Below, one piece after another: positions 8,844 to 27,051 of a stretch of DNA of 30,081 nucleotides. The stretch covers positions 1-30,081 of the IMG/VR virus record IMGVR_UViG_3300032268_000535, one strand, 5' to 3'. The stretch is from a virus. Every line of letters begins with the position of its first letter. Within the stretch, counting starts at the first letter, position 1. A program made the position numbers and the translations under genes. The notes below the pieces were generated by a model. That model did no database searches. It had not been told where the DNA came from and was given only the letters and a program-made list of their open reading frames with translations.

Positions 8844-11800
8844 ATGGCCGACGAAATCATCCAGGATAAACGCGAGGCGGCAAACTATCTGCTTCGCCAG
8901 TATCGCGAAAATCCTCAGTTTGAGTTCACACAGGACGAGGCAAAGATCGTCCACGAATCGTATGAGGGCAAAGTCCGATTCGTAGATTCAAAACCAATAT
9001 TTGAGGACGAATTGACTTCTGCTGAATTCATTAGATCTCAAGACGAGTCAGATCCAAACTTTATAGCGAGTGAAGACGAGTTTCTTCTTCTAAAAAGAAC
9101 CGAACCCACATTCAGCAAGAAATTTGAAACCGGGTACGAGGGCGGGAAGCAGTACTTTAAAGATGCTTTTGGAAAGGCTGGGCAAGATATTGCAGAATAC
9201 TACAACAAGCCTATTGAGTTTGGTGACGAAATAAAGCCCCTCGCAACAGCAGCCGAGGCGCTAGCAAGAGGCACCATGGATCTTGGCACAACAGTAGCCG
9301 GGGCGTCAAAGTTTATCGAGAAGGTGCCTTACATGGCTGCCGGGGCGCTTGGCCTCCAGGCAGATTATAAATCGTACCTAAACCAAAAGACGATCGACCA
9401 AAACTATCAGATGCAGGCAGTTGACAAGATCAACGCCGAAAGAGCTCAGGGGAAAAGCATTATTGGATTGCCGAAGGAGTCGATCATGCCGGGGGTTGCA
9501 GAGGTTGGATCAATGTTCCTCGACCCCACAACATTTGCACCACTCGTCGGTCCAGGAGCGAAGGCTACATCCGCCGCGTCAAAAGCTAGCAGGGGATTAA
9601 GAGTTGGGACTAAGGTTGCCGAAGGAGTTGAAACTGGAGCTAGGGCTGTTGGGAACGTGATTGATCTTGGAGTCGAAAAGGTTGGGCAGGGCATCCAACG
9701 CGTTCTGCCTGGCGTAACTGCACCGAAGACTGCCGGAGCTATGGCTGCTGGAGCAGCTGCCGTTGGCATTCCAGGTGCATTCCCGGTCGGAGCCAAGATT
9801 GCCGCGACCAGGGCTGGAGCAGAGGTTGTAGAGAAAGGAGCCCAGGCCGCGAGGATTATGGGCGAAGAAGCAATGACAGGACCTTCTCGCATGAACCTTA
9901 TGCAGAGGGTTGCGAAGAATCAGAAGAATCCGGAATGGTTGCGCCGGGCTGCGAACACATCAGTTCTATCGTCTCCAATAACTGCCAAAACTGCTGAACT
10001 TGGACTAGACGTAGGGGTTGGATCGGCAAAGGGAGCGGTCGTTGGCGCGGGATTAGGTTACGTTGGGTCCGGTGGTGAAGAAGAGGGCATTGGTGGCGGA
10101 GTGGCAATTGGATCTAGGATGGGGGCAGTCGGAGGAGGATTTAGAGGAATTTCTCAACAGCCAGCCAGGAAAGCCCTGGCAAAGCAGGGTGACGTTAACA
10201 GGCTGCTTGCAAAACAGGCCGAGCTTGGGCTGGATGTAGAAAGCATAGCTAACTACATCCGTAAAGACAATCGTCCATTCCTAGACGCGGCGACCCTTCA
10301 GATGATGGACCCGAACGTCCAGGTCGAGTTCCATAATCGTGATTCTTTCATGAAGCCAGAAAATGCCGGGATCAACGCAGCGGGTGTAGTGAAAGGAGTT
10401 CCAGACAAAAGTGGAAAACTTAGGTTGCTGATAAACATGGACGACAAGAGGGCTTCGGGGGATACGGTGCGCCATGAGGCAACGCATATTATAACGAAGT
10501 CACCAGCAATCAATAAGTCTGAAGGTCGCATGGCAGTCATGGCGGAATATGGTCCGGAAGGTCTTCGCAAAAGAGGTAACGAGTACGCAAGAAAACTTAT
10601 TGAAGGCGAGCGCCAGGGCCGTGGATCTCCTACCGAAACCGAGGTGAGGGCAAAGGTGAACGAGCTTCGCGAGGGATCTCAAAGGGCAGAACCGGGGGCT
10701 GGAGACCTGGATTGGATTGCAGACGAAATTCTTGCCGAACAGTTTGTTGGAGAAACCCGAGGCAGAGATCTTGATTCTCTCCGGCGCAAAACTCTTCCGG
10801 GCACAGATCTGCTCTCGCTCCAGGAAGGATTCTTGGCCCCTGTTGGAAGGCTTTTGAATAAGTTCGGGATCGACACGACAGGGCCCAAGCCAACGAATAT
10901 TGACACGCTCTTTAAGGACAATCCCCTGGTCCCATCAAAGCAATTGCGTGAGCTCACGACAAGATGGTTCCGGGACCGCGACAAGTATCTTGACGGACTA
11001 GAGAAGGCAGAGAAGCAGAAGGACGTAACGCTCGTACCGGGGCCAGGGAACAGAAACCTAGCGAACAATCCAGCAATCCAATTCACTCGCAACAGGAAGA
11101 CAAATCTCGAGGAAAACGATTTTGCTGTCAGGTTCCCAGACGGCACCGTTCGAGCCAAAGACCCAGCATCGATCTTGGCGGTCGACAAGGCCAGGGTGGC
11201 GGACGTTGCCAAAATGTACGATCCCAACGCTGTCCTAGAGCGCGGGAGCCCCGAGTTTGGCGTCAAGATTCAGTCTGATGGCAAACCATACGTCGGTGGC
11301 AATACCCTCCCGGAGGGATTCTTTAACCTCGACAGTTTTAACGATTTCACGAAGGAAGTAGCCAAGACCCTCCAGGACAGTCGTCAGGAGGGTAAGACAT
11401 TTTCTGTCTGGTACCAAAAGATCGGCACAGGCGAGGATGGTAGCTGGGCTCAGTCTGTTAAGCGCGGACTAGGCAACATTAAGGTTGGACAATCCGAGAT
11501 CGCGTTCCTGGGTTGGCGCCTGTCTAAGGCCGGGAACATTTTGGCACAGGCAGTGGACATATCTGCCCTGCGCGGTCGCATGCTGGATTTTGCCAGGAGT
11601 GGCAAGGGCCGGATCAACGAGGTGTGGGGCGGAGACTTGGCCTCATACGAGAAGGACGTCATGCAGTACCTGGATAACCATGCCAACGAAAGGCCGGGGG
11701 AGACAGGGATCGGCATCGATAAGCGCAACGCAATCAACTACCTATTCGGCATCACAAACATTGCCAACAAAGATGCTAATCCAATGTACGCCACCGAAGG

Positions 11801-13859
11801 GCGACCCCCGGGGAGCCTGGTCAAATCTTATCGCCTAGACCGTATCGCCAACTCTCGCGATACCGGACGCACAGGATTCTTTTTCGATTACCAGAAGCAG
11901 GCTGCGAACTTGGCCCCGGGAGAGAGGTTTGCTCCGGCGGAGGCCCCAGCAAAAACTCCTTTAACCGACGAAGAGTTTACCGCAACGCTTCGTAAGGCAG
12001 CTGGCGATCCAGAGAAAAACCTTAACCTTCGGCTTGCAAGACGAGAAGGTACTGGTGTGGCAAAGAATAAACTTACTGAATTTACTACCAGAGATGGAAA
12101 GCCAATTGTAATTGGATCTAGCGCTGAAGATGGTGGTAAACCATTTTCTGCCTGGCAACGAGAAACAAACGCATGGCTGACTTCCGACGAAATCGGCAAA
12201 TTTCGCAAATGGTACGACGACTTGCCACAGGAATTCAGAGGAAGGTTTGATGAAGACCCCGGGCGTTACATGGTTTCATGGCTTGCTGGCCAACAGAACG
12301 CATCTCCAGGCCAGGCTCTTGGAATTATGTTTAGGGCCATGGATAGGATCGATGGCATCATCAGCGTTAACGAAAAGACAGGAAAACTTCTCAAGGGTGG
12401 ACTTGCCGACGACAAGGTAGAGGCAATTCTGCGAGGGAAAACCCCAGAGGGTGGGTATGGGCCTAAGTTAACAGATTTTGCAGATGCCGGGCTTGGCAGA
12501 TCGTCACGATCGTTTATGGGAGACGACCCCAGGGGGGGACAACCTTTTGTAGCGGATGTTCACACTGGACGCGATAGTGGTCACGTCGATCAGCAAACAT
12601 TGACTCGATTAATTTCCCTTTCTGAAGACAACAATCTTTTCATGAATGGCAAGCCAGTTTCGCTCAAAGCATCTGAATTCAAGGTTGTTTCGGCCAATGG
12701 GAAAACAACGAAGGTTCCTGAGAAAGTGGTAATTCAGCAACCCGGTGAAAAATCTTCTACAATTTTTGCTGACATGCGCGGGAGCCCCGGAGCAAATCAA
12801 TATGAGGGAATTTCGGTTTGGGGTAATAAACTCACAGATTTTCTGAATGAACAAAACTGGGAAGGAGGCAATTGGAAACCCGCCCAGGCGCAGGCTGTTG
12901 GATGGATGAGAATATTGCGTCAATACGGACTTAACGAAGGAACGTCTGAGGGCTCGTTCCGGACGAACACAAGAGACATTTATGCTGAAGTTAACTACAG
13001 TTCCGGAGCAGTTCTGCCAAGGATGTTTCCAGAATTTGGAAAACTTACGCCAGATCAACAGGCTTCAATTACTTCTTCTGTAATAGAAAAGACGGTAAAT
13101 GATCTCGTCGGAATTATTGGCGGATCTCTGAGGAAGGTAAGCATCACATCCGGGAAGGGTTATTTTGGTGGAGAGGCATCTCCGGCAATGATGATTCGGG
13201 CAATGGGCAGCAAGGAAGTAGCCGACATGCTTACGGTCGGTCTGGCGTATGTCTCTGAGCAGACCATGGCAATGTCTGTTATCAATGGGCAGGGAGGAAA
13301 GGCGAGTAATGGAATTTACATTCGCAAACTTGATAAAACTCCATTCACCCAGGAAAATCTTAATGCCTTGGCAAAAATGGATCAGATCAAGGGCATGAAT
13401 GCATTTCCTGTGGACGGATATGACACAATTTTCATTGCAGATGCGGGGAAGGATTTCGCTCCAAAGGGATTTACAGAGGAAAAAGCAATTTCCCTTAGAG
13501 ACGTGATGGCTAAATGGGTGCGAGAACAAGGCTTGGGCAAGGTTGACATTAGGCCGACTCCGTGCAAGATTGAGTCCTATGGCCAGAATTATAGAGAACA
13601 ACCCTCCGGAAATTCATTCCTTCGTCTTTTTGACGCCAGAGGAGGCGGTAAAAGAATTCGGAGGCTCATTCAGTATCGTGGGGAATATGTCAAAAACCTC
13701 AGAAAAGCCTTTGCCGAGTTTGCCCCAGAGCAACCAATCGGAAGAGAAGATCCAGAAATCAGATCAAAGATAACTGAAGCTCAAAAAGAAATTCTGCTTG
13801 AGGTAGAGCTCAATCGCAGAAGGCTTGAAAAAATAAAAGCAGAAGAGGCTAAAAAATGA
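8844..13859 (+). CDS. Giant internal virion/ejection protein with zincin-type metalloprotease motif
   Basis: At 1671 residues this is by far the largest gene in the window. Residues 1-110 are acidic and helical. Residues about 220-430 are Gly/Ala-rich and hydrophobic (GAMAAGAAAVGIPGAFPVGA, GAVVGAGLGYVG), as in T7 gp16-like proteins that enter membranes. Residues 543-549 read RHEATHI, an HExxH zinc site with H544, E545 and H548. A downstream DWIADEILAEQF (E628, E632) could supply the third ligand, as in gluzincins. Residues about 870-1500 contain blocks such as VWYQKIGTGEDGSWAQ and FVADVHTGRDSG, reminiscent of large phage polyvalent proteins. The end is a charged coiled coil. A role in ejection, wall or membrane penetration, or host protein cleavage is inferred. 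The next gene on the other strand ends 2 bases beyond its stop. Confidence 0.72.
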   Translation: MADEIIQDKREAANYLLRQYRENPQFEFTQDEAKIVHESYEGKVRFVDSKPIFEDELTSAEFIRSQDESDPNFIASEDEFLLLKRTEPTFSKKFETGYEGGKQYFKDAFGKAGQDIAEYYNKPIEFGDEIKPLATAAEALARGTMDLGTTVAGASKFIEKVPYMAAGALGLQADYKSYLNQKTIDQNYQMQAVDKINAERAQGKSIIGLPKESIMPGVAEVGSMFLDPTTFAPLVGPGAKATSAASKASRGLRVGTKVAEGVETGARAVGNVIDLGVEKVGQGIQRVLPGVTAPKTAGAMAAGAAAVGIPGAFPVGAKIAATRAGAEVVEKGAQAARIMGEEAMTGPSRMNLMQRVAKNQKNPEWLRRAANTSVLSSPITAKTAELGLDVGVGSAKGAVVGAGLGYVGSGGEEEGIGGGVAIGSRMGAVGGGFRGISQQPARKALAKQGDVNRLLAKQAELGLDVESIANYIRKDNRPFLDAATLQMMDPNVQVEFHNRDSFMKPENAGINAAGVVKGVPDKSGKLRLLINMDDKRASGDTVRHEATHIITKSPAINKSEGRMAVMAEYGPEGLRKRGNEYARKLIEGERQGRGSPTETEVRAKVNELREGSQRAEPGAGDLDWIADEILAEQFVGETRGRDLDSLRRKTLPGTDLLSLQEGFLAPVGRLLNKFGIDTTGPKPTNIDTLFKDNPLVPSKQLRELTTRWFRDRDKYLDGLEKAEKQKDVTLVPGPGNRNLANNPAIQFTRNRKTNLEENDFAVRFPDGTVRAKDPASILAVDKARVADVAKMYDPNAVLERGSPEFGVKIQSDGKPYVGGNTLPEGFFNLDSFNDFTKEVAKTLQDSRQEGKTFSVWYQKIGTGEDGSWAQSVKRGLGNIKVGQSEIAFLGWRLSKAGNILAQAVDISALRGRMLDFARSGKGRINEVWGGDLASYEKDVMQYLDNHANERPGETGIGIDKRNAINYLFGITNIANKDANPMYATEGRPPGSLVKSYRLDRIANSRDTGRTGFFFDYQKQAANLAPGERFAPAEAPAKTPLTDEEFTATLRKAAGDPEKNLNLRLARREGTGVAKNKLTEFTTRDGKPIVIGSSAEDGGKPFSAWQRETNAWLTSDEIGKFRKWYDDLPQEFRGRFDEDPGRYMVSWLAGQQNASPGQALGIMFRAMDRIDGIISVNEKTGKLLKGGLADDKVEAILRGKTPEGGYGPKLTDFADAGLGRSSRSFMGDDPRGGQPFVADVHTGRDSGHVDQQTLTRLISLSEDNNLFMNGKPVSLKASEFKVVSANGKTTKVPEKVVIQQPGEKSSTIFADMRGSPGANQYEGISVWGNKLTDFLNEQNWEGGNWKPAQAQAVGWMRILRQYGLNEGTSEGSFRTNTRDIYAEVNYSSGAVLPRMFPEFGKLTPDQQASITSSVIEKTVNDLVGIIGGSLRKVSITSGKGYFGGEASPAMMIRAMGSKEVADMLTVGLAYVSEQTMAMSVINGQGGKASNGIYIRKLDKTPFTQENLNALAKMDQIKGMNAFPVDGYDTIFIADAGKDFAPKGFTEEKAISLRDVMAKWVREQGLGKVDIRPTPCKIESYGQNYREQPSGNSFLRLFDARGGGKRIRRLIQYRGEYVKNLRKAFAEFAPEQPIGREDPEIRSKITEAQKEILLEVELNRRRLEKIKAEEAKK

Positions 13860-18599: not shown

Positions 18600-19218
18600 T
18601 TGCCAGTTGCCGGAATGGTTTGAGAATCATTCCCTCCCAAGGATGGAAGAGTCTTCTAAGCGATGGGACGCAAATCTTGTAGTCATTAAGCCTGAGAAGC
18701 CGATCGGACTGCTAGCCAAAATGTCACTGGTCGACGCGGTGCAGAATGCTGACAGGACTCTGTTTGTCGACAGCGATGTATTAATTTCGCGTGAGTGCGT
18801 AAACCCATTCGAGACTTTTCCACAAGGACACTTTTACGCTTGCGCCGACGCGCCTCACGGTGACCAGCTACATTGGGGCCGGGCGAACGAGATGATCTTA
18901 TCTCAGGCAATGCTCGGATCGGTCAAGTGGACCCAGGGCTACTTCAACACCGGTGTGATGGTGTGCGACAAGCAACATGCAGGCGCCTGGGCCAATTTCG
19001 TGTACGCACCATTCGCGTTCCCTGAGCAGACTTTCACCAACTACCGGGCCAGGATGCTCGGTTACTCCATTCGTTTCCTGAGTTGGGAATGGAATGCGAT
19101 GGAGATTAATACCCCGAAGGACAAGAAGCAGTCAGACGGATTCATGCCACACGCAGCCGGGATCTACGGAGATGCTAGGGCGAAGTGGATTGAGGAAATG
19201 GACAAGGTACTACCATGA
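18574..19218 (+). CDS. Glycosyltransferase, GT8-like (GT-A fold)
   Basis: The protein has 214 residues. TLFVDSDVLISREC contains the D66-S-D68 (DXD) motif that binds metal and sugar-nucleotide in GT-A enzymes. GYFNTGVMVCD and the C-terminal PHAAGIYGDARAKW match the substrate and C-terminal His blocks of GT8-type proteins. There is no signal peptide or membrane segment. The likely acceptor is unknown: phage DNA, host lipopolysaccharide or a phage protein are all possible. It is translationally coupled (ATGA) to the GT9-like gene, so both probably serve one pathway. AAGGAGG precedes the ATG by 8 bases. Confidence 0.75.
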   Translation: MKRQIVTVSCQLPEWFENHSLPRMEESSKRWDANLVVIKPEKPIGLLAKMSLVDAVQNADRTLFVDSDVLISRECVNPFETFPQGHFYACADAPHGDQLHWGRANEMILSQAMLGSVKWTQGYFNTGVMVCDKQHAGAWANFVYAPFAFPEQTFTNYRARMLGYSIRFLSWEWNAMEINTPKDKKQSDGFMPHAAGIYGDARAKWIEEMDKVLP

Positions 19219-20279
19219 GAATATTGACCCTAAAAGATCCCATGATGTTGGACGATCGTTTGCATCATCCGCACGATTCGATCGTAGTCCCGGACGAGGT
19301 CCGCGGAGTGCCCGGGACACATGCCGATGCCTACACGATTCCTTACAGGGTTGGTTGCGCCTCGGGCGGATACGCGGCCCTGTACCGGGGCGGGGCGATC
19401 GGGGATCAGTTCATCGCCATGGGCATCGCCAGGGCAATGCAACACTACGAGGGAGACGGAAGGATCGAGGCTTACGTTCCGCAAAGGCACTTGCCACTGT
19501 GGGAAGGATTCGCCGGAGTCAGGGTCATGCCATTAGCTCCTACGATTGCTACCTGGAAATCCTACAAGGGCCATGTCTGCCTGGACGATATCCTGTCGAA
19601 GACAGCGCACCTAGATGGCAACGTGTACGACTACGTCTACAGATCCTGGGGCGTCGAGGTCGACGACAACTTTAAGAAGCCTTACGCCAAGCTACTGGAC
19701 AAAGACCAGAACGAACTTGCCGACATTGGATTCCATCCGGAAGGACCGTTCCTGCTCTATTCGATCAGCGGGTCTAGCCTGTGGAAGAGCTACCCAACCT
19801 ACGAGGCAGGGCTGTTCATTAAGTCGTTCCTAAAGGAGAACAAGGATTGGCAAGTCGTAGCAGTGGGCCACGACGATCCTCCTTTATCTATCACGCACCA
19901 GAGGCTCATCAATCTCCAGGGGAGACTACGCAACGTTAGGACGCTACTGCACCTGGCTGCGCGTTGTGACATGGCAGTTTGCCCGGAGTCGGCAATCATG
20001 CACATGACAGCGATATTCGACGCGCCAACCGTTGGACTGTACGGACCCTACGGACCTGAGCACACGTCGAAGTACTACAAGTATGTGAAGCCAATCTTTC
20101 CTAAAGATGTTTGTCCCCACGCCCCATGCTCGGTGTACGAGCAACCCAAGGACAAATGTAAAGACGCGGTCAACGCAATACAGGGAGAACCCAAATGGTG
20201 CAACGTTCTAAGGTCAATCAAGCCAGAAGATATCCTGGCAAAGACAAAAGAAATCCAGGCAAACCTAAAACAGATCTAA
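19215..20279 (+). CDS. Glycosyltransferase, GT9/heptosyltransferase-like (GT-B fold)
   Basis: The protein has 354 residues. An N-terminal domain has ALYRGGAIGDQFIAMGIARA, the Gly-rich loop of heptosyltransferases. The C-terminal domain has AVCPESAIMHMTAIFDAPT and VGLYGPYGPEHTSKYY, the classic GT9 donor-site block (D/E-S-x-x-x-H and GLYGP). GT9 enzymes add heptose or related sugars to LPS core; here the acceptor is not evident. A Cys-rich segment (DVCPHAPCSVYEQPKDKC) near the C-terminus may bind metal, as in some GT9 relatives. The stop region overlaps the next gene by about 85 bases. Confidence 0.8.
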   Translation: MRILTLKDPMMLDDRLHHPHDSIVVPDEVRGVPGTHADAYTIPYRVGCASGGYAALYRGGAIGDQFIAMGIARAMQHYEGDGRIEAYVPQRHLPLWEGFAGVRVMPLAPTIATWKSYKGHVCLDDILSKTAHLDGNVYDYVYRSWGVEVDDNFKKPYAKLLDKDQNELADIGFHPEGPFLLYSISGSSLWKSYPTYEAGLFIKSFLKENKDWQVVAVGHDDPPLSITHQRLINLQGRLRNVRTLLHLAARCDMAVCPESAIMHMTAIFDAPTVGLYGPYGPEHTSKYYKYVKPIFPKDVCPHAPCSVYEQPKDKCKDAVNAIQGEPKWCNVLRSIKPEDILAKTKEIQANLKQI

Positions 20280-20449
20280 TCAGAATCGTTTCTGAGAAGA
20301 AAGTTGTTTGCTACGAATTAAATCTTGATGTTGACGATGATGTGTACGAATCAATCGTTGAGGCCGGGCGCGTCCATATCGCTAACGACAAGGAAGCACT
20401 GTTCCAGTACGCGTTAAAGACCGCGCTCAAGGAGATAGCAAATGGATAA
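20195..20449 (+). CDS. Small conserved hypothetical protein
   Basis: The protein has 84 residues. The first 28 are basic and lie in the GT9 overlap. The rest (VVCYELNLDVDDDVYESIVE, then HIANDKEALFQYALKTALKE) looks like a compact alpha/beta unit; the D-x-x-x-x-L-F-x-Y-A-x-x-x-A-L block recurs in small phage proteins. No other start codon is visible in the frame after the GT9 stop, so either the long overlap is real or a rare start is used. It overlaps the oxygenase start by 8 bases. Confidence 0.5.
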   Translation: MVQRSKVNQARRYPGKDKRNPGKPKTDLIRIVSEKKVVCYELNLDVDDDVYESIVEAGRVHIANDKEALFQYALKTALKEIANG

Positions 20450-21005
20450 CTTCAAACAAAAGATCCTTACAGCAGTGTGCGAGCCGGACGTGTTGACTGA
20501 GCACCAGTGCAGCATGATCCGCGATGACGCCCAGGTCATAGGCATGAAGAGATCTCACATCATGAACAAGGATGGAACAACCCGGGCCGCGTTCACCAGG
20601 ACATGCTCGTCGTGTTGGGTTCCGTTCGCGGAACATTACAAGTGGCTATACGAAGTGGTGAAGAACATGGCCGGGGATCTAAACCAACAGCACTACAGGC
20701 TGGACATTACCGGAATGCAACAACTGCAGATCTTGCGCTACAGGCCCGGGCAGTTCTTCCTACCACACTTCGACTGCTTTGACGGCAGCGATCGCAAGCT
20801 AACGATGGTGATCAACCTATCAGATCCATCCGAGTTCCTCGGCGGAGGGCTCAGGGTTGAGTGTGACTTGCACAATGCCAAGGATGTTAAGAAGCGGGGA
20901 TCGGCGACAATGTTCCCCACCTACATTAAGCACCAGGCGCTGCCAGTGTTCTTTGGCTCCAGGTGGGTCCTGGTCGCCTGGCTGACCGGGGGGCAGTGGA
21001 GATGA
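20442..21005 (+). CDS. Fe(II)/2-oxoglutarate dioxygenase, prolyl-4-hydroxylase-like
   Basis: The protein has 187 residues. The facial triad is visible: H109-x-D111 in FFLPHFDCF and H164 in YIKHQALPVFFGSRWVLVAW, with R174 as the 2-oxoglutarate-binding arginine. This P4Hc-type fold is common in phages of aquatic bacteria. It hydroxylates a protein, amino acid or sugar-linked substrate rather than having the TET/JBP signature for DNA methyl groups. The adjacent GT8 and GT9 genes suggest hydroxylation followed by glycosylation as one hypothesis. The next gene starts inside its stop (ATGA). Confidence 0.8.
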   Translation: MDNFKQKILTAVCEPDVLTEHQCSMIRDDAQVIGMKRSHIMNKDGTTRAAFTRTCSSCWVPFAEHYKWLYEVVKNMAGDLNQQHYRLDITGMQQLQILRYRPGQFFLPHFDCFDGSDRKLTMVINLSDPSEFLGGGLRVECDLHNAKDVKKRGSATMFPTYIKHQALPVFFGSRWVLVAWLTGGQWR

Positions 21006-21082
21006 GCGGCTGGTACGCAATTATTGTTTGGGTAATTGTTTTTGGATTGCTAGCAATCTACTGCGATAAGCTAACAAAATGA
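21002..21082 (+). CDS. Membrane miniprotein of 26 residues
   Basis: The protein begins MSGWYAIIVWVIVFGLLAIY and ends in a charged CDKLTK tail, so it is essentially one transmembrane helix. It overlaps both neighbours by exactly 4 bases (ATGA at 21002-21005 and at 21079-21082), the standard junction of this operon, which strongly supports translation despite the length. The function is unknown; inner-membrane exclusion or holin-like roles are possible. Confidence 0.65.
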   Translation: MSGWYAIIVWVIVFGLLAIYCDKLTK

Positions 21083-21252
21083 GAGCTCTAGCCTGGACTT
21101 TTTATTGGATAGGAGACTTGATCTCAAGGACGATCATGCGGTTTGGTTGGGGATATTCTATCTACAACAGGGTCATGAACTGGTCTCTGAGCCTTGATAA
21201 GGATGAGTCGGTTTGGAAGAAGATTAAGAGCGAGGCACCCTGGAAGAAGTAA
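21079..21252 (+). CDS. Small aromatic-rich conserved phage protein (57 aa)
   Basis: The protein opens MRALAWTFYWIGDLISRTIM, with RFGWGYSIYNRVMNWSLSLD next and a charged tail. This Trp/Tyr-rich, amphipathic pattern recurs in short phage proteins of unknown role and suggests a membrane-surface association. It is joined by ATGA to the miniprotein before and by TAATG to the GIY-YIG gene after. Confidence 0.65.
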   Translation: MRALAWTFYWIGDLISRTIMRFGWGYSIYNRVMNWSLSLDKDESVWKKIKSEAPWKK

Positions 21253-21803
21253 TGGTTTACGTAATTAAAGACAAAAAGGCCGACCTATATAAAATAGGTT
21301 ATTCGTGCAATCCAATTGATAGAATAAGATCATTTCAAATAGGAAGTGAGAACCTTGAGACTATTCTTATTATGCCAGGAGACAGGTCGAAAGAGAAAAT
21401 TCTTCACGAGCATTTTTCACACAGAAGAGTTAGACACCCAAATCCTAAAGGTTTTACTGGCAATGGATGGACGGAGTGGTTTAGGTTAAGTCAAAAAGAA
21501 ATATCCAGAATAAGAAATTTATACATAAAAAAGCTGGATTCTATGGAGGAAAAGATGGACTATCTCGAAAGAACTGTTCGCATTGAGGCTGGCAATGCCA
21601 AAATACTTTATTCTGTAATACAAAATCTTGAGGACACAATGGATAGAATATCTAAAATTTATATGGGCAAACTATGGGCAGATAAAAATTCTGGTTTCGA
21701 TAGAGATATTTTTAAGGACCCGATAGCTCTTGAGTTTATGGGTTACAAAAGATACTCCAAACTAAAAAAAGACTTGATCGACCTCACAACCCCTTGTCAA
21801 TAA
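21252..21803 (+). CDS. GIY-YIG family nuclease (T5orf172/Mug113-like)
   Basis: The protein has 183 residues. Residues 1-80 give the GIY-YIG core in its T5orf172 variant: VYVIKDKKADLYKIGYS, then NPIDRIRSFQIG (Arg site), SKEKILHEHF (metal-binding Glu, E48), and NGWTEWFRLS. Residues 85-145 are a coiled coil (EEKMDYLERTVRIEAGNAKI) that may dimerise or bind DNA. Codon use is strongly A/T-ending, unlike its neighbours, suggesting recent acquisition. It could be a homing-like or host-DNA-cutting nuclease. It is joined by TAATG to both neighbours. Confidence 0.75.
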   Translation: MVYVIKDKKADLYKIGYSCNPIDRIRSFQIGSENLETILIMPGDRSKEKILHEHFSHRRVRHPNPKGFTGNGWTEWFRLSQKEISRIRNLYIKKLDSMEEKMDYLERTVRIEAGNAKILYSVIQNLEDTMDRISKIYMGKLWADKNSGFDRDIFKDPIALEFMGYKRYSKLKKDLIDLTTPCQ

Positions 21804-25757: not shown

Positions 25758-26026
25758 AGTATTACGCCGAAGAGGAAGGTGAACTGACGTTCGAGCAGAT
25801 GGTCCCGGGCAAGTATTATCGGTCCGGGAACGACTACGGTATCTGTGAGATCAATGAGTACTCCAGCAAAAGGCCCAAGATCTTAAAGTATCTGAATAGG
25901 TGCGGGAGTTGCATAGGCGGAAACGTTTTGCTGTTCGAGGTCGACATGACGGACAGGCTCCTGGCAGTGCTGAAGAAGCGCCGAGACAGGGAGATGGCAT
26001 TCATCGATGAGATGAGGACATGGTGA
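25754..26026 (+). CDS. Small conserved hypothetical protein
   Basis: The protein has 90 residues from ATG 25754, chosen because GGAGGAAACC precedes it; earlier in-frame starts would overlap the miniprotein. LTFEQMVPGKYYRSGNDYGI gives a beta-rich domain, NRCGSCIGGNVLLFEVD carries a C-x-x-C pair, and the end is a charged helix (LLAVLKKRRDREMAFIDE). Metal or redox function is possible but unproven. Its TGA overlaps a GTG start for the Mom-like gene. Confidence 0.55.
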   Translation: MKYYAEEEGELTFEQMVPGKYYRSGNDYGICEINEYSSKRPKILKYLNRCGSCIGGNVLLFEVDMTDRLLAVLKKRRDREMAFIDEMRTW

Positions 26027-26688
26027 GTTTACGCGCAGATAGTTCAGTAGTAGAACTTCCCCTATTCCAAGGGGAGAACGGAGGTGCAATTCCTACCTCT
26101 GCGCTCCAACTTAAATTCCGAGCCATAGGGTCAAAGACGATGAATGAGGTAGTCGTCGCCAACCACTACGCGCACCGGGCCGTGCCTTGCAACTGGTCGT
26201 TCGGATGCTTCCATGGCAGTGAACTGCTAGGCGTGATCTCGTTCGGCAAACCCGCGTCGCCTCATCTATGCAGGGGCATATGCGGGGCAGAGAATGCGTC
26301 CAGGGTCTACGAGTTGAACAGATTGTGGCTCGACGATCGATGCCCCAAGAACTCTGAGAGCAGATTCATATCCTGGAGCATTCGAGAGTTAACGAAGTTG
26401 CGGCCCTACTTAATCCTGGTTAGCTATGCAGATACCGGGGCCGGGCATAATGGAATGATCTACTCGGCAACGAACTGGATCTATACCGGACTATCTGACA
26501 AGAGATCTTCCGGGGACAAGGTGGTCGGCAACAAGCACAGCAGACACTCGCGGACCATGGAGGAAGCAGTGATCGTTCCGCGGACCAGGAAGCATAGGTT
26601 TGTCTACTTCTGCAATCAGAAGGACAAGCCTTTGCTGAAATGGGAGATACAAAACTGGAAAGAGTGGAAAGAATGGAGGGAAGAATGA
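26020..26688 (+). CDS. Mom-family DNA adenine modification protein (GNAT fold)
   Basis: The protein has up to 222 residues. From about residue 30, VVANHYAHRAVPCNWSFGCF, GVISFGKPASPHLCRGICG, YELNRLWLDD (E98), PKNSESRFISWSIREL, ILVSYADTGAGHNGMIYSAT and NWIYTGLSDKRSSG follow the phage Mu Mom family block by block. Mu Mom is an acetyl-CoA-dependent enzyme that converts adenine in DNA to an N6-carbamoylmethyl-type base and blocks restriction. The C-terminal RKHRFVYF also fits the family. The first ~28 codons overlap a tRNA-Gly-like element. ATG 26020 and GTG 26023 (GTGA junction, GAGG 5 bases before) are in frame. ATG 26140 would remove the first family strand (LKFRAIG). No com-like regulator is certain; the next gene is a zinc-finger candidate. 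Confidence 0.78.
   Translation: MVSLRADSSVVELPLFQGENGGAIPTSALQLKFRAIGSKTMNEVVVANHYAHRAVPCNWSFGCFHGSELLGVISFGKPASPHLCRGICGAENASRVYELNRLWLDDRCPKNSESRFISWSIRELTKLRPYLILVSYADTGAGHNGMIYSATNWIYTGLSDKRSSGDKVVGNKHSRHSRTMEEAVIVPRTRKHRFVYFCNQKDKPLLKWEIQNWKEWKEWREE
26033..26108 (+). tRNA. tRNA-Gly(TCC)-like gene, expanded anticodon loop, inside mom-like 5' end
   Basis: A full 76-base cloverleaf can be drawn. The acceptor is GCGCAGA (26033-26039) with TCTGCGC (26098-26104), 7/7 pairs, then T and encoded CCA (26105-26108); T at position 73 is typical of bacterial tRNA-Gly. The D-arm is GTTC/GAAC (4/4). The anticodon stem TCCCC/GGGGA is 5/5, with an 8-base loop TATTCCAA (26063-26070) containing TCC preceded by T and followed by A. 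The T-arm GGAGG/CCTaCC has a bulged A at 26095 and loop TGCAATT (T55 replaced by G). One D-loop G is A (AGTAGTA). The extra loop base, bulge and G55 suggest an unusual or decaying tRNA. Confidence 0.65.
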
Positions 26689-26882: not shown

Positions 26883-26928
26883 TCCAAAACAGCCATTTCG
26901 GGCTACTCTGTAAACTGCGGGTTCTACA

Positions 26929-26975
26929 CTGTTTCACCATTTCGATCCCCTTATATATACAGAATGGTGAAACAG
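26929..26975. repeat. Perfect 13-bp inverted repeat with AT-rich loop
   Basis: CTGTTTCACCATT (26929-26941) pairs perfectly with AATGGTGAAACAG (26963-26975). The 21-base spacer contains TTATATATAC. It is too long-looped for a typical terminator; an operator dimer site or replication-origin iteron pair fits better. Confidence 0.75.
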
Positions 26976-27051
26976 ACCCCTGTTAGAGCGGGGGACTAAA
27001 GTCCCCCCGCTTCGCTTCGCTAGCGGTACCGCTCCAACCGCGGGGTCTTTT
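26974..27051 (+). terminator. GC-rich stem structures ending in a short T-run, attenuator-like
   Basis: AGCGGGGGACT (26987-26997) pairs with AGTCCCCCCGCT (27000-27011) with one bulged C. The palindrome AGCGGTACCGCT (27022-27033) can form a second hairpin. CCGCGGGGTCT (27038-27048), directly before TTTT (27048-27051), can pair instead with the CCCCGC of 27005-27010 or with AGACCCC at 26974-26980. The two pairings exclude each other, as in attenuators. The call as a terminator is tentative. Confidence 0.4.

What the first reader, a model, noticed from the sequence alone, without database searches (positions are those of the whole stretch)
26020..26108. Complete tRNA-Gly-like cloverleaf nested in the 5' coding end of a mom-like gene
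The first codons of the mom-like frame coincide with a 76-base element with full acceptor, D and anticodon stems, T73 and encoded CCA. The family's first strand (LKFRAIG) begins right after the CCA, and no start codon lies between. So either the enzyme is translated through the tRNA sequence, or the tRNA took over the 5' end. RNase P/Z processing would remove the start codon and silence the enzyme, making tRNA maturation a switch for a potentially toxic DNA modifier.
Basis: partly seen in the sequence, partly recalled or inferred. Interest (0 to 1): 0.85.

Follow-up and report, generated by a model that had tools for sequence, protein, structure and literature searches.

The report
Glycine tRNA embedded in Mom gene
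A phage gene for a DNA-modifying enzyme carries inside its own reading frame a complete but decoding-crippled glycine tRNA, and the same pairing recurs in hundreds of phages, which suggests that the phage brings its own glycine carrier to decorate its DNA against host defences.

Summary
Bases 26033-26108 fold exactly as a tRNA cloverleaf (z -3.25) with glycine identity elements (G1-C72, C2-G71, G3-C70, U73, UCC) and an encoded CCA. The sequence lies in frame, upstream of the first strand of a Mom-family GNAT enzyme (Pfam Mom E=1e-39; fold match to Mu Mom 8bv8, Z 20.6). It is no accident. A tRNA-only DNA pattern found 127 tRNAs, 118 of them next to a Mom gene. Starting from Mom proteins alone, 77/80, 64/80 and 66/80 loci in three subfamilies carry the tRNA at one end of the gene. 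Its stems covary massively and its four-fold sites are frozen (15% versus 67% divergence). Features needed for decoding or EF-Tu binding are often lost: bulged A in the T-stem, altered G18/U55, frequent loss of U33, even a missing D-arm. Best reading: a dedicated, translation-shy tRNA-Gly, charged by host GlyRS, that donates glycine to Mom. [quoted passage not shown] Mom appears to be translated through the tRNA. The proposed toxicity switch is untested and not the general rationale: a large part of the family has the tRNA at the 3' end.

The parts
26014..26017 (+). GAGG, possible Shine-Dalgarno, better spaced for GTG 26023 than for ATG 26020
   Evidence: sequence; in layout A relatives of the A6 subfamily an SD-like word precedes the upstream start in 18/52 versus 12% background
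26020..26688 (+). Reading frame of the Mom-family enzyme (222 aa from ATG 26020; probable start GTG 26023)
26033..26108 (+). tRNA-Gly(UCC)-like gene with encoded T73-CCA, in frame with and overlapping the 5' coding end
   Evidence: Rfam 33.5 bits; MFE cloverleaf z -3.25; family model R1 77 bits (the window sequence is one of the 50 sequences the model was built from)
26033..26039 (+). Acceptor stem 5' strand GCGCAGA, pairs with 26098-26104 TCTGCGC; G1-C72, C2-G71, G3-C70
   Evidence: pairs 4, 5 and 7 covary across the family
26042..26056 (+). D-arm GTTC-AGTAGTA-GAAC, G18 replaced by A; compensatory GCTC/GAGC in L008, L011, L032, L034
26058..26075 (+). Anticodon arm; anticodon TCC at 26066-26068
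   Evidence: C35/C36 in 100%/97% of pattern-selected 76-mers
26080..26097 (+). T-arm GGAGG-TGCAATT-CCTACC with bulged A at 26095 and G in place of U55; pair 50-62 (sequence numbering) covaries
26105..26108 (+). Discriminator T73 and encoded CCA
   Evidence: sequence; T73 in 60/62 and 43/54 of protein-selected loci
26110..26655 (+). Mom (GNAT) domain; Ser114 at 26359-26361 equals Mu Mom Ser124
   Evidence: Pfam PF25680; AF2 and 8bv8

Best explanation
The element is a dedicated, non-translating tRNA-Gly that serves as the glycine carrier of the Mom enzyme encoded with it. Inferred sequence of events: the phage transcript carries both. RNase P and 3' processing release the tRNA. Host glycyl-tRNA synthetase charges it through G1-C72/C2-G71/G3-C70/U73/C35-C36. 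Its altered T-stem and loops keep it away from EF-Tu and the ribosome, and U73 protects the glycine from D-aminoacyl-tRNA deacylase. The GNAT enzyme Mom then transfers glycine to adenine N6 in phage DNA (Mu product: N6-carbamoylmethyladenine), blocking restriction. Because mom is translated through the tRNA, one transcript can give enzyme or tRNA but hardly both. Shown here: the tRNA fold, the covariation, the genomic linkage, the open frame, the conserved catalytic serine and fold. Inferred: processing, charging, EF-Tu avoidance and use by this Mom.
For: Linkage from both directions. (1) DNA pattern of T-arm plus acceptor only: 127 tRNAs, 118 with a Mom domain on the same strand. (2) Mom proteins only: tRNA at the gene end in 77/80 (Mu-like), 64/80 (A5) and 66/80 (A6). 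Cultured phages too: Salinibacter B2_17, Psychrobacter Y8A (two in tandem), Arthrobacter BarretLemon and Wyborn, Microbacterium Appa, always Gly. Stems covary: 320 double-change cells versus 80 in shuffles. Four-fold sites differ 15% in the tRNA versus 67% in mom. The GlyRS elements and C35/C36 are near-invariant while U33, N34, GG18-19, U55 and the D-arm are lost in many. The fold equals Mu Mom 8bv8, Z 20.6, with the catalytic serine kept. A 2025 review cites Silva et al. [quoted passage not shown] U73 protection and non-proteinogenic tRNA-Gly: PMC6097841, PMC4052509.
Against: No RNA, charging or DNA-modification data exist for any of these phages here. Mu Mom itself has no local tRNA, and only about 11 of 78 loci in the Mom subfamily nearest the window carry one, so a private tRNA is not obligatory. 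Some relatives have lost the cloverleaf. Arthrobacter and Microbacterium copies lack the T-stem bulge, so EF-Tu avoidance may not be universal. The R1 hits lean towards the model's own consensus. All 29 GTDB hits are MAG contigs, so hosts are poorly known.
Confidence: 0.83

Rival explanations
1. A cis-acting tRNA mimic: the cloverleaf in the mom mRNA is an operator bound by Mom (or a tRNA-processing enzyme) to repress or tune mom translation, and never acts as a free tRNA.
For: It lies in the coding end of mom in layout A; Mu mom is already known to be controlled at translation by an RNA-binding protein, Com (PMC6483171 abstract); Mom is toxic when artificially expressed (PMC12707154).
Against: An operator needs neither the glycine identity set, nor U73, nor an encoded CCA, nor C35-C36. 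The 3' location in a large part of the family and the two tandem copies in Y8A fit a product better than a 5' operator.
Confidence: 0.1
2. One reading: maturation of the tRNA cuts off the start codon and silences a toxic enzyme; regulation, not donor supply, is why the two are fused. (Can coexist with the donor role in layout A.)
For: In layout A the starts are usually upstream of the tRNA, so processing must destroy the message for Mom.
Against: Layout B (tRNA at the 3' end) and convergent Appa do not remove a start codon. L172 and L190 have their own ATG after the tRNA. It does not explain why the tRNA is always Gly.
Confidence: 0.25
3. An ordinary phage tRNA-Gly that supports translation of phage genes (codon compensation, or replacement of tRNA cut by host defences).
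For: Phages often carry tRNAs; the window copy keeps U33 and anticodon UCC.
Against: Nearly exclusive neighbourhood with Mom genes; frequent loss of U33, anticodon ACC, GG18-19 changes, T-stem bulge, D-arm-less copies; standard finders miss many (the Y8A paper reports no tRNA, PMC10434257).
Confidence: 0.03
4. A recombination or integration landmark: a conserved tRNA-like sequence used for module exchange, with no RNA function.
For: Almost the same tRNA is joined to at least six divergent Mom types in related phages, so recombination at the tRNA has clearly happened.
Against: Compensatory changes in all four stems and constancy of unpaired identity bases need selection on RNA, not on DNA identity. 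No integrase was seen among the window ORFs that were scanned.
Confidence: 0.03

Closest known systems
Phage Mu Mom DNA modification (Mom/ncm6A; PDB 8bv8; Silva et al. [quoted passage not shown]
   Same: Same enzyme family, fold and catalytic serine; the title states that charged tRNA is used.
   Different: Mu has no tRNA near mom and would have to draw on host tRNA; here the phage encodes the tRNA inside or beside mom. I could not read the preprint and do not know whether it already reports such linked tRNAs.
Non-proteinogenic tRNA-Gly of Staphylococcus aureus and FemXAB (PMC4052509)
   Same: Gly-tRNA diverted from translation to a transferase; changes at positions 18-19 and in the T-stem that weaken EF-Tu binding; U73 kept.
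   Different: Chromosomal, separate genes, cell-wall acceptor, no T-stem bulge described, no overlap with the enzyme's gene.
Ordinary phage tRNA genes
   Same: Short phage-encoded tRNA with CCA.
   Different: These lack parts needed for decoding and stand almost only beside Mom genes.

Membership tests
Mom DNA-modification enzyme (PF25680) | Pfam model above curated cut-off | tested here: met
   136.5 bits vs 27.1, E=1.3e-39; phrog_1384 E=7e-50
Mom DNA-modification enzyme (PF25680) | GNAT-type fold of Mu Mom | tested here: met
   8bv8_A Z 20.6, 184 aligned, rmsd 3.3
Mom DNA-modification enzyme (PF25680) | Catalytic serine (Mu Ser124) | tested here: met
   aligned to window Ser114 in NSESR; near-invariant in A4
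Mom DNA-modification enzyme (PF25680) | Transfers a glycyl unit to adenine N6 of DNA | not testable with these tools
   needs enzyme assay or mass spectrometry of phage DNA
Bacterial tRNA-Gly, charging identity | G1-C72, C2-G71, G3-C70, U73, C35, C36 (own knowledge of the identity set; U73 and C2-G71 also in PMC6097841, PMC4052509) | tested here: met
   all present in the window and near-invariant in the family, with A73 in 10/54 of A9
Elongator tRNA (decoding-competent) | G18 G19, T54-U55-C56, unbulged 5-bp T-stem, U33 | tested here: not met
   window: A18, G55, bulged A; U33 present. Family: U33 in 74% of 76-mers and mostly absent in layout B; bulge in 57/62 and 52/54
Non-proteinogenic tRNA-Gly | Glycylated but weak EF-Tu binding | not testable with these tools
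   sequence signs only (T-stem bulge, A18/G55)
Non-proteinogenic tRNA-Gly | Associated with an aminoacyl-tRNA-dependent transferase | tested here: met
   genomic association only: adjacent Mom in 118/127, and 77/80, 64/80, 66/80 in reverse tests; that Mom uses charged tRNA rests on the cited preprint title

The most novel reading that the evidence does not exclude
A whole class of phage DNA-modification systems encodes its own amino-acid carrier: a tRNA-Gly stripped of decoding features, embedded in the reading frame of the enzyme that consumes it, so that tRNA maturation and enzyme synthesis exclude each other on one transcript and set the enzyme-to-donor ratio.
Probability: 0.45. Interest if true: 0.92.

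Novelty: new variant of a known kind. Interest (0 to 1): 0.85.

Why it matters
What donates the glycyl unit of Mom was long unclear (glycyl-CoA was proposed, PMC7824862). The constant pairing of Mom with a glycine-identity tRNA, in phages of Proteobacteria, Bacteroidota and Actinobacteria and in many metagenomic contigs, is independent genetic evidence for glycyl-tRNA. It also gives a ready handle on how charged tRNA is diverted from the ribosome. It would be a tRNA gene kept for DNA chemistry, overlapping the coding sequence of the enzyme that uses it. Standard annotation misses it: Y8A was published as having no tRNA. The tRNA also marks momylating phages and divergent Mom enzymes.

Tried and rejected
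ARAGORN and plain tRNA scans were negative or ambiguous for the window and many relatives, so they were not relied on. A chance ORF-tRNA overlap was rejected by conservation and by the two-way linkage tests. An 8-nt anticodon loop (frameshift-suppressor idea) was dropped: the energy fold gives a 6-nt loop, canonical numbering 7 nt with a C27-A43 mismatch, and relatives L028-L030 break the 8-nt register. A function for the N-terminal peptide as part of the fold is unlikely: AF2 leaves residues 1-30 disordered (mean pLDDT 34-59) and L100 reads the D-arm in another frame, although decayed relatives keep the peptide. phiEf11 was suspected from a long tblastn match but has no tRNA there. Literature searches for Mom plus tRNA gave no paper reporting linked tRNAs in the held library; the key preprint is not held. 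VIA-align listed no aminoacyl-tRNA transferase of the FemX or L/F type among its 50 best rows, which shows neither kinship nor its absence. The A6 loci without an R1 hit were first taken for failures of the model and mostly turned out to carry decayed copies.

Full report
What is there. The window is a linear IMG/VR phage fragment. At 26033-26108 lies a 76-nt element that folds, as its own minimum-energy structure, into a cloverleaf with 7-bp acceptor, D-, anticodon and T-stems, T73 and CCA (-29 kcal/mol, z -3.25). Rfam calls it tRNA at 33.5 bits (cut-off 29); ARAGORN does not. It sits in frame within a 222-residue ORF whose residues 31-212 match Pfam Mom (E=1.3e-39) and PHROG 'Mom-like DNA modification protein'. 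No start codon lies between the CCA and the first strand. The most conserved start is GTG 26023: several relatives have lost ATG 26020, and others have ATG in place of GTG 26023.

It is conserved as RNA. In 34 relatives found by protein similarity the 76-mer and the open frame are both kept. Against 11 of the more divergent ones, four-fold degenerate sites differ at 26/169 (15%) in the tRNA but at 459/681 (67%) in mom. Several of the changes are compensatory, such as D-stem GUUC/GAAC to GCUC/GAGC and T-stem A-U to C-G. The same 76-mer is joined in frame to at least six Mom types, most of them only about 28-48% identical to each other. The joint is always at the same place, with the CCA just before the enzyme's first strand.

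Linkage tested from the RNA side. Of 127 newly fetched hits with a proper acceptor stem, 118 have a Mom-family domain on the same strand: 70 with the tRNA at the 5' end (layout A), 44 at the 3' end (layout B), 4 slightly further away. Mom itself is rare: none of the 14 well-known control genomes has a Mom domain.

Linkage tested from the protein side. With a covariance model R1 built from 50 divergent tRNAs, loci chosen only by Mom similarity were scanned. In the Mu-like subfamily 77/80 carry the tRNA just after mom. In the A5 subfamily 70 matches include 64 at the mom 3' end. In the A6 subfamily 66/80 have it just before mom. Some of these loci overlap with those found from the RNA side. In the subfamily nearest the window only about 11 of 78 contigs have it; in two of these it stands beside a second mom gene. 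Cultured phages show it too: Salinibacter B2_17 with an annotated tRNA-Gly, Psychrobacter Y8A with two D-arm-less copies in tandem, Arthrobacter BarretLemon and Wyborn overlapping the mom 3' end, and Microbacterium Appa with a convergent tRNA-Gly. Mu, JD024, JeffCo, A511, LP-031, PM87, Alsa_1, pAEv1818 and phiEf11 have none next to mom.

What is kept and what is lost. On protein-selected loci the stems show 320 cells changed on both sides against 80 in shuffles (layout B) and 190 against 66 (layout A); sliding the partners destroys the signal. Acceptor pairs 4, 5 and 7 (and in layout B also 6) vary with compensation while G1-C72, C2-G71 and G3-C70 stay fixed. U73 (60/62 and 43/54) and the CC of the anticodon (62/62 and 53/54) are also kept. 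These are the glycyl-tRNA synthetase elements (own knowledge). By contrast U33, N34, GG18-19, U55 and in some copies the D-arm are lost, and most copies have a bulged A in the T-stem (57/62, 52/54), also copies that were not selected for it. R1 hits lean towards the model, so the exact percentages are upper estimates; the genomic positions are not affected by this.

The protein. AlphaFold2 with 51 sequences gives a confident core from residue 31 on and leaves the tRNA-encoded residues 1-30 disordered. The fold is Mu Mom (8bv8_A, Z 20.6, 184 aligned, 27% identity), followed by general GNATs at Z 12.8 and below. The serine whose mutation inactivates Mu Mom (S124A in the title of 8bv8) corresponds to Ser114.

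Is mom translated through the tRNA? In layout A the Mom frame is open in 54 of 56 unique tRNAs versus 11 and 16 in the other frames, and a start codon usually lies just upstream of it. A6 relatives that have lost the cloverleaf keep the peptide PLF-x12-LQL at the same or nearly the same spacing, as expected if the peptide had been part of the protein. L172 and L190 instead have a separate ATG after the tRNA. Translation through the tRNA is therefore probable, not proven.

Mechanism. Glycine identity plus loss of translation features plus constant pairing with one enzyme family says that the tRNA is charged for Mom. A 2025 review cites Silva et al. [quoted passage not shown] I could see only the title. 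Parallels exist: S. aureus uses weak-EF-Tu tRNA-Gly for FemXAB (PMC4052509), and U73 is the shield of non-proteinogenic Gly-tRNA against DTD (PMC6097841). From general chemistry, N6-glycyl-adenine and N6-carbamoylmethyl-adenine are isomers, so a rearrangement after glycyl transfer would give the Mu base; this is inference. Earlier authors had proposed glycyl-CoA (PMC7824862).

Verdict. The donor-tRNA reading is well supported by comparative evidence and untested by experiment for these phages. The switch is possible for layout A only. Novelty depends partly on the unread preprint; I rate it a new variant of a known kind.

Noticed in passing
L414, L420, L442, L445, L450, L455, L457, L461, L469, L478, L486 upstream of their Mom match: Mom relatives that keep the tRNA-derived N-terminal peptide but have lost the cloverleaf: coding sequence born from a tRNA gene.
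   Followed up: partly
L311:2156-2296 (Psychrobacter phage Y8A 7786-7926): Two tandem D-arm-less tRNA-Gly after mom in a phage published as having no tRNA genes; the paper also lists a second Mom gene (ORF69).
   Followed up: partly
L311, L312, L313, L314, L323 upstream of mom: A ParB/sulfiredoxin-like gene directly or nearly directly precedes mom in five cultured phages of different hosts; possible functional partner.
   Followed up: no
L283, L287, L289, L290, L300, L301, L302, L303, L309 (Bacillota MAGs): Several copies of closely similar mom-type tRNAs per MAG, some without an intact Mom gene nearby; looks like a proliferating or decaying element.
   Followed up: no
L180, L224, L267, L233: Two Mom-family genes in a row, the first one carrying the tRNA.
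   Followed up: no
window 19215-21803: Glycosyltransferase family 9, 2OG-Fe(II) oxygenase and T5orf172-like genes upstream of mom, a possible further modification cluster.
   Followed up: no
window 8844-13859: 1671-aa protein without Pfam or PHROG match at E 0.001, in the structural region of the phage.
   Followed up: no
window 26910-27050: Intergenic stretch after mom with repeated GCTTCGCTTCGC and C/G runs, between mom and the terminase genes.
   Followed up: no
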